Source: Siphonodentalium dalli (lineage: Eukaryota > Mollusca > Scaphopoda > Gadilida > Siphonodentaliidae). Taken from it: 64,000 nucleotides of DNA. A model generated the notes under the pieces. That model saw nothing but the letters and a program-made list of their open reading frames with translations. It was not told the DNA's origin and made no database searches. Shown here piece after piece: positions 3,454 to 27,918 of this stretch (its first letter is position 1; every line of letters starts with the position of its first letter). The translations under genes were made by a program, and so were the position numbers. Where the stretch lies: assembly GCA_032622095.1 (NCBI GenBank), contig CP136066.1, positions 101,639,319 through 101,703,318 on the forward strand. The letters run 5' to 3'.

Positions 3454-3608
3454 CGCCACCACCTCGGAAACAACGAAGGGAGAGAACCACTTTTACAAAG
3501 ACACAGCTCGATGTGTTGGAGAAGTTATTTGCTAAAACCAGATATCCTGATATATTCATGAGGGAGGAAGTGGCCATGAAAATTAACCTGCCAGAGTCCC
3601 GTGTACAG
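3454..3608 (+). CDS. Exon with homeodomain residues 1-46 of the divergent otx
   Basis: 155 nt, entering in phase 1 (two bases complete a split codon) and leaving in phase 0. It encodes PPPRK and then the homeodomain up to SRVQ. The 5' phase and both splice positions equal those of the otx exon 26918-26767, so both genes descend from one intron-bearing ancestor. Confidence 0.9.
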
Positions 3609-6600
3609 GTAATTATGGTATTGCCAGTGTTTGGACTCTAAATTGTCTGTTGGTTTCATAAGGTTTGTTCATTTGGACTTTTTATCAGAGAATTATACCA
3701 TACCTAAACACATAATAAAAACTGATCAAACCATGTGAATCCAATATTTACGGTTAAATCTGAAGTATGACATAATGTTATTTATTATTTATCACATAAT
3801 TCGCCCCTAAATCCGGCATAATATTTTTAGTAAGACATACACGTGTGGTATCGGCACGCGCAGTGACCTAAGAGCTCAGCGCAATGATGTGGATGTCAAT
3901 GCCGGAACTTTATTAGTATGCTAATTGGAATATAAGTATGATATTCGATTTGTAATGGGTTATTTAGTGTTGACTGTGAGATAAACATGAGTGATACGCG
4001 TGCGGGTGGTTGAACTATTATATCAACATGAAAAGACACATTTAAAATGGAGCTATATTTTTTCCTGAAGGTGTCTTTACTTCCCCTTTTTGGTGTTGAT
4101 AAGGAACTCAATAATATGATTACGTCAGTACGTATGGACAACTCAAAAACACGTACTTCGATCTATAAAATGGTAAATGTATGTTTCATGGGAGTGCCTG
4201 TATTTCCGGCCAACTTGGGTCAATACGTCAGTACGTATATATATATGGACAGAGACATGTCTCTATTCCGAAGGTTCGCTATTCCGAATATTCACTATTC
4301 TATTCCGAATATGTGAATACTAGCGTAATAGCATTTTTCATTCCTCGTGTGGTTTTTATGGGGGGGGGGGGGGGAGGGTGCACATGGGGCTGCAAATTTC
4401 AATTAATTTCTGTTTAAATACGCCCAGAATAGAAAACCTTCAGAATAACGAATCTTCGGAATAACGAATCTTCGGAATAACGAACATTTGGAATAGCGAA
4501 CCTTCGGAATAATGAATCTTCGGAATATGGAACCTTCGGAATAATGAACCAGATCCTGTATGAACATACCACGACACGTTCATCAATAAATGTATAAATG
4601 TTTCGTGGGACTGTTTATATATATACATATATAGGACTGGAGTAAAGTTGACACCAACGCGTCTTTGGTAATTTTGGTGCCCGCATTTCAACGAAATTTG
4701 GTGTGGTGACTCGGGGTGCCCTGGCAGAGTGTATAATGGCGTTAGTTTTTCTAAATTTTTATTTAAACAAATTTAAATGAATAAAAATATGAACCTATGT
4801 GAATATTTAGGTACAATATAAACCTATTTGCACGAGAATATGTTGCAGCACCAGATATAGTGGAATGTTGGCCACAGTTAGACATGGGCCAGAGTGAGAC
4901 ATTGCCTCTAACATTTCTCTAATTTCCAGACCAATATCAATGGGGCCAGTCCAGAGATATTAGCCATATAACACATGTTATTATATTTGTTCAAAATGCT
5001 ATCATCAGGTGAAGGTTGACTCTGGCCCAGCCACCAATTTTCAAGGCAAAATCAATTAATTTAATTTTTGCAATTTCAAGGGAAAAATATGTTTATTGGA
5101 TATAATACTGAATACATTTTTGTGATGTGGAAAACTGGCATTTATTACATATTTCACATAGCCACATCTGATTTATTTATAGACGTTTATGTATGCTTGA
5201 CTTTCATCGAGTTACACGGGTGGGGGCACAAAGACTCAATGGGACACAATTTCTGGCCTGTGGTAGGATCCACCTTCAGTAGATGATAGGCACTTAAAAA
5301 GGAATGACATAATTTGCCAAATGACTATTGTTTTGGGGCTGGAGTGGATAAATAATTTAGATCAAACAAACTGATGTCATTGTGCAATAGTGGTATGTGC
5401 GGGGCGTTTCCTATACGGTTACTACTAATTAATCAAACGTGCATATATGCACGTTTACTGAGTTCACCTTAAAAGACCATCGAACCACAAAAAATACTAG
5501 ATCATGTCATGAATCTCTACACTAGATATGACCGTATACTATAGACCATATTACACCAATTGCACTGTACACAAACCTGGGAACTATTTTATGTTCTGAC
5601 AGCGAAATTTATAACAATGAATGATCAAGAAGGGAATATATTTTCCTTTATTGTTAATACTTGTTCCTCGATAATCTACTTCACAGTAGGGGTGGTCCCA
5701 GCTCGAGATTGCTTGCTTGTTTGTGACTTTTGTGTGATTATATCGTACTCTCAGGTGTCCCATCAGTGTGATGGTCAATACTATTGATAGTGGAGACTGA
5801 AATTAATAATAGTGATGGAAATTTAATTTTATTTAATTCTATTTTAATTTAATTCTATATATGTTTCTATGCCAAATAATTTAATGATCGTTGAGAATTT
5901 TATAATTGCCCGGGAGGAATTACATTGGTGTAAGGGACGCAAAGCAAAATCAACCACAAAGTCACTTAAATCTTGCAATTTCAAAGTTAGACCTTCACAT
6001 TCTATGACACACATTATTAAGGAACGGGTATTTCATAATTTATTACCTGTACTGTTTTTTCATTGTTACAAACTTCCCTATCGCAACAGCAAAAACTTTG
6101 TACTGGTGGAATATATCATTCTCGACGGGCATAGATACATAGAGATTCATGGCATGGTCTAAGAAAATGCTATCAGATTAAACATTTATATGACCATATG
6201 CGATTGCCCCATGAATCATGTAGAACTAAAAGGTCATGGCAGTTGGAACATCTCGGCCTGGAATTATTATGTTTAGCATACAGATTATTCCAATCCCAAT
6301 GTGTCAGGTCGACAATAGCAAGTACGCAGGGCTATATTTAATAATTTTTCCACAAATACCACTAGTATATATGCTAGCCATGCTGACCGGGCTCCCGGTT
6401 AATGCTTAAGGTTTAAACCGAGAACACAGTGTTAAAATCATGAAATATTTAATATATGAGAATGCTGAAACAAATCACCTTTAACTTAATGGCGTTATTA
6501 ACGGTGCATTATTATTATAATTATTATATTTAACTTGATCTGTCCATCACAGGAAACAGAATTCTTAGATGGAAAGTTGAAAGCATATCCTCTCACCAGT

Positions 6601-25781: not shown

Positions 25782-26360
25782 TTATAACACTTGGAACTTG
25801 GCCCAGCTTGGGTCTTTGTAGTCAGCGATATCTGCTCGGTCAAGTTGGTTCTGGTACTGAAGATTGTAGTGGCTGTAGGTTTGAAGTGGTGGCGAGTTGG
25901 ACGGACTGTTACTCTCCATTCCTGACGAGTTTAGATGTGACTGGTCGTGGATTGACGTCTGCTGTTGATGTGATGTCTGCATCACCGGCCACTGCATGCT
26001 ACCGTAGTAGTCCGTTCCTGCATAATACGGGGATGGTGCATAGTTGTGCGCGTATGACGATTGCGTGTTGGCGACCGGGTAGCTGAGGGTGTTGCGTGTT
26101 GGGTACTGTTGACTGTAACTCATTGTGTCGACGTTTGTGTTGATTGAGACTGGATTCCAGATGGACGACGAAGCAGAGAGAGGATTTGTGGGGACTGGTG
26201 ATATGATCTCCGACGCCTTGTACAGATCAGGTGATGATGACGTGCTGGGTGGAGATTTCGCCTTCTTTGGTGCCGGTGGAGAATCGCCATCCTTGGCTTT
26301 GTTGAGGTCAATCGATTTCTGTTGTTGTCTGCACTTGGCTCGTCGGTTCTTGAACCATAC
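25782..26360 (-). CDS. otx: Last coding exon of otx
   Basis: 579 nt including the stop. Starts [10 protein letters not shown] after acceptor ATCTTATAG and ends with the Otx-type C-terminus KFQVL. No single clear polyadenylation signal was picked in the following 570 bp. Confidence 0.95.
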   Translation of the reverse strand, partial: VWFKNRRAKCRQQQKSIDLNKAKDGDSPPAPKKAKSPPSTSSSPDLYKASEIISPVPTNPLSASSSIWNPVSINTNVDTMSYSQQYPTRNTLSYPVANTQSSYAHNYAPSPYYAGTDYYGSMQWPVMQTSHQQQTSIHDQSHLNSSGMESNSPSNSPPLQTYSHYNLQYQNQLDRADIADYKDPSWAKFQVL

Positions 26361-27918
26361 CTATAAGATATACAAATAATAAGTTAAAAACTGGGATATT
26401 GACACATGATATTACAAACGTTACCAATTAGATCCATCCAGATGAATAATAAATAACAAATTAATAATAGATGAAGTTAACCAACATTAAAAGCTGGGGG
26501 CACTAGCATCGTTATAACCCATAAAATATTAATTATGTACACAGGATTTAAGATACATAAATAAACAAAGATGTCCAACAGATTAGGTAGCCGATATGGT
26601 ATACTCTATTAGGGAAAATATAAAAATTGGGTCAACTTATAAAGCCCATGAAAATGAATGAATGGGAACCTAGTACTACTCATGCCCGATGATTTAATTT
26701 TCAATGGTATAAATTATTTGCTCACCAATAAGTTTATATTAAAAATTCAAAAAAAAATATTCTTACCTGGACACGAGATTCAGGTAGGTTGATTTTCATG
26801 GCGACCTCCTCTCTCATGAAGATGTCGGGATATCTGGTCTTGCCAAAGAGAGACTCAAGAAGGTCTAGCTGAGCTCGAGTGAATGTGGTGCGTTCACGTC
26901 TCTGTTTGCGAGGTTGTCCTAAAATTAAAATAAGATTATATATCATGTTGTCATTGTCCAAAATATCACAGAAAAGGCTGAATATTGGACAGAAACATGG
27001 GAACCCTTCTGTTAGAAATGTTGGATGGTTGATGCTTCAATTATATTTCTTAACAATGCATGTTGCGTTAGTTTTTCTAACAATTATCCCCGCGAGGTCT
27101 TTCCCTTTTTACGCGAACTTACGAACCATGTAATTGTTCGCTTCTCGGCTTGTCTTGGCCCTACTTCTGACAACACAGCCCTTGCTTCAATGGACCCTTA
27201 AAAGTTCATTAGGAATGTTTTCTTAAAGCCTAATGCGTAGCAGAAGAAATTGAAAGGAGGTACGTTGTTGTTATAGTACGACTATGCAGTGTAATTGTTT
27301 CTAGTTGCGATGGCCGCCCGGGGCGAACATGGGACACATTATAACCTATTGTAATCTATCCCCTTTATCAAAGAATGTACCGCCGTCAGATAATTAGAGG
27401 TATACAGCGAACAGGTATAGATTTTGACAAGTTTAATATAGCTTTAGGCTAATCTAATGAATGACCAGCAATGGATTTGGAAAAAAACTGCTTATGAACA
27501 CAAGAATTCAATACGATGCTTCTTATTCATATATATCAAAACTTTGAATGTTGAAACCAATTATTATTCTACAACATATTAAAATGAGCAATGAAGCATT
27601 ATTGTGACGAGATCACCAGAAAATATTATTTCCCATCTGCATATATTCGTAACTTCTTTAAGTAAAGGCGAGTTACATTTTACTAATATCAGAATGATGG
27701 ATCTAATTCGCTGGACCATAAACTACTTGAGAACCAAATACACACTGAAATAAGCTATATGGATAGGGATAGTTACCTGGAAATCCAAGAGCTGGGTGCA
27801 TCATGTCCATGCTGGAGAGACTGGAGGTTGGCATCGCGCTCAAGGGGTACATGCTGGTGTTGGCGGATATCTTAGCCTGCTGCATGGATGAAGGAGGGTA
27901 AGCCATTGTAGTCATCAT
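25782..27918 (-). CDS. otx: Otx (orthodenticle) homeobox transcription factor, complete, three coding exons
   Basis: Nuclear transcription factor of the Otx family, which patterns anterior ectoderm and neural tissue in bilaterians. Exons: 27918-27777, 26918-26767 and 26360-25782; all introns are GT-AG and phases 1 and 0 join in frame to give 290 residues. The start [10 protein letters not shown] precedes an N-terminus with [13 protein letters not shown]. The homeodomain (residues 53-112) runs [10 protein letters not shown] to CRQQQ with Lys50. Conserved Otx tail features are present: SIWNPVS (164-170) and a last stretch [13 protein letters not shown]. Basic and Ser/Pro-rich residues follow the homeodomain. 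Introns are short (858 and 406 bp), unlike the + strand paralog. The stop is TAA at 25782-25784. An in-frame acceptor and upstream donor suggest a noncoding exon further 5'. Confidence 0.95.
26767..26918 (-). CDS. otx: Otx exon with homeodomain residues 1-46
   Basis: 152 nt between acceptor TTAATTTTAG and donor GTAAGA. Encodes QPRK and the homeodomain to SRVQ. The intron phase matches the + strand paralog. Confidence 0.95.

What the first reader, a model, noticed from the sequence alone, without database searches (positions are those of the whole stretch)
3454..27918. Two convergent Otx genes in one 25-kb block, one canonical and one strongly divergent
Both genes share the K50 homeodomain (54 of 60 identical), the phase-1 intron before it and the phase-0 intron after Gln46, so they arose by DNA duplication with inversion and not by retroposition. 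Both carry Met where vertebrate Otx has Leu in REEVALKINL, hinting at a lineage-specific duplication or gene conversion. Most bilaterian invertebrates are described with a single Otx.
Basis: partly seen in the sequence, partly recalled or inferred. Interest (0 to 1): 0.8.

Follow-up and report, generated by a model that had tools for sequence, protein, structure and literature searches.

The report
Cluster of four ancient Otx genes
The two head-patterning (Otx) genes seen in this stretch are the middle pair of four old Otx copies sitting close together on one chromosome of an unnamed spiralian animal, two of them still textbook-like and two strongly changed outside the DNA-binding part.

Summary
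It is incomplete. In the whole genome the pair is the middle of four Otx genes on contig C6, 101.612-101.745 Mb, oriented + + - - (O1 O2 O3 O4). The most canonical gene is O4, outside the window, with Leu36, the N-terminal motif and an Otx-like tail. The window's "canonical" gene is O3, its "divergent" gene O2. All four models have open frames, splice signals and the same two intron phases. Codon choice in the homeodomain is as good as random in all six pairs while 49-56 of 60 residues stay the same: the copies are old, under purifying selection, not recently converted. An unrooted four-gene tree prefers (O1,O4 | O2,O3), which would fit inverted duplication of a two-gene block, but not significantly; adding human OTX2 leaves the root unresolved and slightly favours O1+O2. 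Multiple Otx genes are known (three clustered in Nematostella, at least three in a leech, two in serpulid worms). This is a new, larger bilaterian example of a known kind. Species and function were not determined.

The parts
3454..3608 (+). O2 exon 2 (phase-1 intron before it; holds homeodomain residues 1-46)
13302..13976 (+). O2 exon 3: homeodomain residues 47-60 and a divergent, acidic tail (a run of 12 Asp), to the stop codon
27777..27918 (-). O3 exon 1, ATG to phase-1 donor; contains [10 protein letters not shown]
26767..26918 (-). O3 exon 2 (holds homeodomain residues 1-46)
25782..26360 (-). O3 exon 3: homeodomain residues 47-60, SIWNPVS motif, terminal [13 protein letters not shown], stop codon
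3609..13301 (+). O2 intron 2 (phase 0, after Gln46), with a 16-bp tandem repeat at 4435-4550
26361..26766 (-). O3 intron 2 (phase 0, after Gln46)
26919..27776 (-). O3 intron 1 (phase 1)

Best explanation
The window holds the middle two of four Otx transcription-factor genes that lie together on about 134 kb of one chromosome. They arose by old local DNA duplications, at least one with inversion, from a three-exon Otx gene. Shown: four three-exon models with open frames and splice signals, same intron phases, K50 homeodomains, no further Otx in the genome searches made, saturated silent sites with a conserved homeodomain. Inferred: all four proteins bind the bicoid/Otx-type site TAATCC, because residues 37-55, recognition helix and Lys50 included, are identical in all four and in human OTX2; O4 (and partly O3) keep the ancestral N- and C-terminal motifs and so probably the ancestral head/ectoderm role; O1 and O2 have rebuilt their tails (O2 with an acidic run) and so probably read the same sites with different partners, or in other cells.
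For: Four homeodomain exons at C6:101622354(+), 101642780(+), 101666085(-), 101742729(-), 81-100% identical to the O3 query, next best in the genome 69% (150 of 186 candidates scored; the 69% hit reads as an Otp-type homeodomain, name recalled). The exon-3 start [15 protein letters not shown] finds these four first (E 0.005-0.28); the other two of six matches (E 0.6 and 4.5) are a Q50 gene and a place 2.3 kb from the Dmbx-type exon L011 (name recalled). Spliced models of 294, 313, 290 and 288 aa, same phases. The four exon-3 frames are the four longest stop-to-stop frames in 143 kb. Tree: four genes plus human OTX2 and CRX against 11 other homeodomains of this genome (9 distinct; 10 of the 11 with residues 1-46 only), 97/93. 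Residues 2-60: 54, 54, 55 and 56 of 59 equal to OTX2 for O1-O4. Homeodomain 49-56/60 identical per pair; fourfold sites equal in 20 of 101 (sum of six pairs); codons as random in 6 of 6 pairs. C-terminal tails: O4 and O3 match human OTX2 (recalled sequence), O1 matches O4, each reached by 0 of 500 shuffles.
Against: No expression data. No relative's genome to date the duplications. Exon 1 of O1 and O2 was picked by similarity, so its similarity scores are biased; O2's exon 1 is the weakest part (E 0.73 within 143 kb; no likeness to O1's N-terminus, 430 of 500 shuffles reach it). O2's tail matches no other Otx tail clearly (71-89 of 500 shuffles reach it against O3, O4 and OTX2; 13 of 500 against O1), O1's tail does not match human OTX2's (176 of 500), and O3's exon 3 as query did not find O2. 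PF03529 (TF_Otx) does not reach its cut-off anywhere in the genome search or in four models scanned. TAATCC is rarer, not commoner, than expected across the region (58 against 98.4), so no sign of dense autoregulation.
Confidence: 0.85

Rival explanations
1. Palindromic origin: a tandem pair (A B) was copied as a block in inverted orientation, giving A> B> <B' <A' = O1 O2 O3 O4, so O2/O3 and O1/O4 are the true sister pairs.
For: The order + + - - fits. The unrooted split (O1,O4|O2,O3) had the best likelihood in all 24 runs (4 partitions x 2 column sets x 3 models, 21 of them distinct), RELL 0.64-0.89, also separately for N-terminus, homeodomain and tail. Met36 is shared only by O2 and O3. O1's tail resembles O4's (0 of 500 shuffles) and O2's N-terminus resembles O3's (0 of 500; biased by how the exon was found).
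Against: The AU test rejected neither alternative in any run (lowest p 0.052). With human OTX2 (recalled) as outgroup the best trees were (O4,(O3,(O1,O2))) in two of four runs and (O3,(O4,(O1,O2))) in the other two, the palindromic tree lying 0.35-2.14 log units behind. No unique non-coding similarity mirrors the two halves; the DNA matches outside exons look like dispersed repeats (at most 25 matches listed per pair).
Confidence: 0.35
2. Stepwise duplication from one ancestral gene (O4 or O3), each copy inserted nearby, with one or more separate inversions; O1 and O2 are the fast-evolving later copies.
For: The best rooted trees nest O1+O2 inside; O4 keeps the most ancestral N- and C-termini.
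Against: O1 and O2 are the more divergent genes, so their grouping under a distant outgroup may be long-branch attraction; the unrooted test does not favour it. No rooted tree is significantly best.
Confidence: 0.5
3. Recent gene conversion between O2 and O3 spread Met36.
For: Met36 is the only homeodomain residue shared by O2 and O3 but not by O1, O4, OTX2 or CRX.
Against: Same codon at 17 of 51 shared degenerate residues, random expectation 19.4; nucleotide identity over the homeodomain, 128 of 180, is not above the other pairs' 123-131. An ancient conversion cannot be excluded.
Confidence: 0.03
4. Assembly artefact (unmerged haplotypes or misjoined contigs).
For: The same assembly holds near-identical duplicated homeobox stretches elsewhere, e.g. 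L033/L034 at 96% and L013/L014 with their longest piece at 98%.
Against: The Otx copies differ at saturated silent sites, and the 143-kb stretch has no N.
Confidence: 0.02
5. O1 and/or O2 are decaying pseudogenes.
For: Their tails have lost the Otx motifs.
Against: Open frames of 294 and 313 codons after splicing, intact splice sites, and a homeodomain still 49-54 of 60 identical to the paralogues despite saturated silent sites.
Confidence: 0.05

Closest known systems
Otx/otd (orthodenticle) family, e.g. human OTX2 (PDB 2dms) and CRX (PDB 9b8u)
   Same: K50 homeodomain: residues 2-60 equal to OTX2 in 54, 54, 55 and 56 of 59 for O1, O2, O3, O4 (position 1 of 2dms differs from the recalled OTX2 and was left out); MDLLHP-type N-terminal motif and C-terminal DYKD...KFQ.L in O3 and O4 (motifs recalled)
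   Different: Four linked copies; O1 and O2 lack the terminal motifs; O2 and O3 have Met36
Three clustered otx genes of Nematostella vectensis (Mazza et al. 2007: title seen in reference lists only; cluster stated in passages of PMC2938728; title again in PMC4407770)
   Same: A local cluster of Otx paralogues
   Different: Anthozoan, three genes; PMC2938728 says that cluster appears restricted to anthozoans. This is a bilaterian with four, in + + - - order
Otx duplicates of annelids: Helobdella (at least three), Hydroides (two) (PMC4407770, passages), Spirobranchus Otx A/B (PMC6118893, passages and one section)
   Same: More than one Otx in a spiralian
   Different: Linkage not given in the passages I read; relation to O1-O4 untested
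Mammalian ETCHbox genes (Argfx, Leutx, Dprx, Tprx), divergent duplicates of CRX (PMC4904359 and PMC8208926: starts of abstracts in the search listing)
   Same: Strongly diverged duplicates of an Otx-family gene, with tandem duplications
   Different: Eutherian only; here the homeodomain stays conserved and the tails change

Membership tests
Otx/otd family | Otx-type homeodomain with Lys50 | tested here: met
   All four genes: 54-56 of 59 residues equal to human OTX2; K50 in all; clade with OTX2 and CRX against 11 other homeodomain rows of the genome 97/93
Otx/otd family | Intron inside the homeodomain between residues 46 and 47 (phase 0) and a phase-1 intron just before it | tested here: met
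   All four genes. Not specific: many other homeodomain matches of this genome also end at residue 46
Otx/otd family | N-terminal MDLLHP-type motif in exon 1 (motif recalled) | tested here: inconclusive
   Clear in two of four: O4 MDLLHPAMNY, O3 [10 protein letters not shown]; weak in O1 (MGLVGPSMGY); not recognisable in O2's probable exon 1
Otx/otd family | SIWSP motif and C-terminal DCLDYKD..SWKFQVL (recalled from human OTX2) | tested here: inconclusive
   Present in O3 and O4 (0 of 500 shuffles reach their tail scores against recalled OTX2); O1 tail matches O4 and O3 but not OTX2; O2 tail matches none clearly
Pfam TF_Otx (PF03529) | Domain score over 25 bits | tested here: not met
   No hit over cut-off in the genome or in four models scanned (O1 and O2 without exon 1). 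I therefore do not claim membership of this Pfam family
Clustered Otx genes as in Nematostella | Same cluster inherited from a common ancestor | not testable with these tools
   No animal genome other than G000 could be searched

The most novel reading that the evidence does not exclude
A two-gene Otx block was duplicated as an inverted repeat early in a spiralian lineage, giving a palindromic four-gene Otx cluster that has stayed together since before silent sites saturated, with the outer pair and the inner pair as true sisters and one gene of each pair (O1, O2) rebuilt outside an almost unchanged DNA-binding domain: an Otx cluster in a bilaterian, held together over long times.
Probability: 0.3. 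Interest if true: 0.6.

Novelty: new variant of a known kind. Interest (0 to 1): 0.45.

Why it matters
Otx is the anterior-patterning gene used to compare heads and brains across animals. A four-gene cluster in a spiralian warns that 'the' Otx expression pattern may be split among paralogues, and gives a natural test: four proteins with nearly the same DNA-binding domain, two with ancestral-looking and two with rebuilt tails, close together on one chromosome.

Tried and rejected
Recent conversion of O2 and O3: rejected by random codon use. NG86 dS could not be computed for any of the six pairs (one search returned -1), so no age is given. Dating or homology from introns and flanks: only exons and what look like repeats matched. 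Dense Otx sites as a sign of autoregulation: TAATCC below expectation. Other genes between the Otx genes: ten open frames of the window (116-180 codons, chosen by hand from those listed) gave no Pfam family at E 0.01; frames outside the window and small exons were not scanned. Rfam: 0 matches at gathering score in the window.

Naming the species: the Hox stretch of C7 reads as Post1, Post2, Lox2, Lox4, two Antp-like copies, Lox5, Scr, Dfd, Hox3, pb, lab, engrailed (13 of the 18 homeodomain loci fetched; names recalled from signature residues), so a spiralian with a mollusc- or annelid-like set. Haemocyanin beta domain, erythrocruorin linker and hemerythrin gave no hit; for the first two no control rang (for hemerythrin 7 of 14 did), and genes are matched exon by exon, so absence is not shown. 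Tyrosinase gave six matches, no array. A search of papers for the chromosome lengths found one irrelevant paper; one for nine-chromosome genome notes listed 25 of 1,033 papers, none with that phrase. A chiton genome paper, PMC12005716 (outline and passages), gave no match I could use. PMC12852818 on chaetognath otx (one passage) said nothing on copy number there.

Literature: ten paper searches; no listed title or abstract start tells of a four-gene Otx cluster, but lists were cut (25 of 1,033, 25 of 28, 30 of 49) and only open-licence papers are held. The peptides [10 protein letters not shown] and REEVALKINL were found in no paper text.
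Full report
What was checked. The window is C6:101639319-101703318 of a 2.227-Gb genome in nine contigs. Both genes of the finding are there. The + gene (here O2) has exon 2 at 3454-3608 and exon 3 at 13302-13976; the - gene (O3) has exons at 27918-27777, 26918-26767 and 26360-25782 (checked again on the window). The homeodomains agree at 54 of 60 residues, both with Lys50 and Met36. The introns are phase 1 before the homeodomain and phase 0 after Gln46, with GT and AG at the junctions. The finding's coordinates are exact.

The pair is part of a four-gene cluster. 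Searching the whole genome with O3's homeodomain exon gave 40 matches (150 of 186 candidates scored). The best four all lie on C6 between 101.622 and 101.743 Mb, at 100, 92, 90 and 81% identity; the fifth is at 69% on another contig and reads as an Otp-type homeodomain (name recalled). Searching with the first 15 residues of exon 3 gave six matches, of which the best four are again these genes (E 0.005 to 0.28), followed by a Q50 gene and a place beside a Dmbx-type exon. Searching with O3's whole exon 3 found O3, O4 (48%), O1 (37%) and two weak hits (E 0.4 and 0.9), but not O2. First-exon queries of O4 and O1 found only themselves. These searches score only the best candidates, so a very divergent fifth gene is not excluded. 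I fetched the flanks and joined them to the window, 143,318 bases without N. Models: O1, + strand, C6:101611642-101611759, 101622334-101622497, 101624428-101625030, 294 aa. O2, first exon probably 101636308-101636419, 313 aa. O3, 290 aa. O4, - strand, 101745317-101745188, 101742883-101742729, 101739443-101738862, 288 aa. All four have an ATG, GT/AG at the eight junctions, phases 1 and 0, and a stop. The first exons of O1 and O2 were found by their similarity to the other first exons (O1: E 0.012 within the 143 kb; O2: E 0.73) and by a correctly phased donor, so O1's is likely and O2's only probable. The four exon-3 frames are the four longest stop-to-stop frames in the 143 kb, and ten other open frames of the window gave no Pfam family. 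I found no sign of another protein gene inside the cluster, but did not scan frames outside the window or small exons.

Which gene is canonical. O4 has Leu36 as in OTX2 and CRX, the N-terminal HPYGVNG...MDLLHP stretch, SPIWNPAS, and a terminal DCLDYKDTSSWPSKFQTL. O1 also has Leu36. Over residues 2-60 the four equal human OTX2 in 54 (O1), 54 (O2), 55 (O3) and 56 (O4) of 59. O1's tail resembles O4's (z 15.2) and O3's (z 8.1). O2's tail resembles none clearly and carries a run of 12 Asp. Thus O4 is the best-conserved Otx, O3 keeps most features, O1 keeps part of the tail, and O2 keeps only the homeodomain and perhaps the N-terminus.

Family. In a homeodomain tree the four genes group with human OTX2 and CRX against 11 other homeodomain rows of this genome (97/93); order within the group is not resolved. 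Of the 11 rows, 9 are distinct and 10 have residues 1-46 only; of 12 candidate loci, L005 was left out because its homeodomain did not match the pattern used. Pfam TF_Otx is not reached, so I do not claim that Pfam family; the homeodomain and introns are what place the genes in Otx.

Age and selection. At residues shared by two paralogues and encoded by degenerate codons, the codon is the same about as often as random choice would give, in all six pairs (15-18 identical of 47-54; expected 17.3-20.4). Fourfold sites agree in 20 of 101 cases over the six pairs. NG86 dS was not computable. So the duplications are old, and the 49-56 of 60 conserved homeodomain residues reflect purifying selection. 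Nucleotide identity of O2 and O3 over the homeodomain (128 of 180) is within the range of the other pairs (123-131), so nothing points to a recent conversion. The shared Met36 is inherited from a common O2/O3 ancestor, an old conversion, or a parallel change.

Order of events. For the four proteins alone the split (O1,O4|O2,O3) has the best likelihood in all 24 runs (21 distinct), for N-terminus, homeodomain and tail separately as well (RELL 0.64-0.89), but the AU test never rejects the other two (lowest p 0.052). With the recalled human OTX2 as root the best trees put O1 with O2 (trees 4 and 15, two runs each) and the palindromic tree is 0.35-2.14 log units worse; O1 and O2 are also the more divergent genes, so attraction of long branches is possible. 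DNA outside exons shows only what look like dispersed repeats, some in both orientations. The palindromic origin is therefore attractive, because it explains + + - - in few steps, but unproven.

How it probably works. Shown: four intact-looking K50 Otx genes in one block. Inferred from family knowledge: all bind TAATCC-type sites, since residues 37-55, Lys50 included, are the same in all four and in OTX2; O4 and O3 keep motifs that may serve partner contacts; O1 and O2 have changed tails and so probably changed partners or domains of use. There is no excess of TAATCC in the region (58 against 98.4 expected), so I do not propose dense cross-regulation. No expression data were available.

What is known. 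PMC2938728 (passages) states that three Otx genes are clustered in Nematostella and that the cluster appears restricted to anthozoans. PMC4407770 (passages) gives one Otx in Capitella and Platynereis, two in Hydroides, at least three in Helobdella. PMC6118893 (passages and section 12) lists Otx A and Otx B in Spirobranchus. Divergent CRX duplicates in mammals are described in abstract starts listed. I saw no report of a four-gene Otx cluster in the listings of ten searches of open-licence papers (numbers and cuts in Tried and rejected); closed papers were not searched.

Organism. The Hox cluster on C7 (76.98-79.08 Mb) has Lox2, Lox4, Lox5, Post1 and Post2 signatures (names recalled), so a spiralian of mollusc or annelid type. 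The species was not found.

Verdict. The real thing is an old four-gene Otx cluster. It extends a known phenomenon (Otx duplication) to a larger and more divergent case in a bilaterian. Interest 0.45, chiefly because the set is a clean test of how tails, rather than the DNA-binding domain, diverge after Otx duplication.

Noticed in passing
L033 and L034 (G000:C7:77673292 and 77720470): Two copies of an Antp-like Hox homeodomain exon 47 kb apart inside the Hox cluster, same peptide, 96% DNA identity over 371 aligned positions: a recent Hox-cluster duplication or an unmerged haplotype. The name is recalled.
   Followed up: partly
G000:C7:76.98-79.08 Mb (L030-L042): A spiralian-type Hox cluster with an engrailed-type gene about 264 kb beyond lab, and Post1 in opposite orientation to the other Hox genes (names recalled).
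   Followed up: partly
L006/L007 and L013/L014 (G000:C9:16.98-17.49 Mb): Paired-class homeobox exons in inverted near-identical pairs about 0.43 and 0.51 Mb apart (longest matching pieces 94% and 98%): recent inverted segmental duplication or assembly artefact.
   Followed up: partly
G000:C1:189.98-190.29 Mb: Thirteen listed homeodomain matches covering model positions 1-46 in a row; the one read, L046, has KKKNRVNYSPDQMAKLLDSFYTNPYPDNDEREQLASELDIPEKNIKV, which looks like a fast-evolving paired-type expansion.
   Followed up: no
G000:C9:120.5-121.7 Mb: Five homeodomain matches covering model positions 1-53, three of them with a stop codon inside; the one read, L045, is BarH-like (name recalled).
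   Followed up: no
window 36578-37143, 47255-48228, 60636-60937, 61630-62117: Tandem arrays with units of about 155-224 bases.
   Followed up: no
G000:C6:101610001-101753318: TAATCC and TAATGG are clearly rarer than a first-order expectation (58 against 98.4; 72 against 119.6), while TAATTA is not (106 against 112.1).
   Followed up: no
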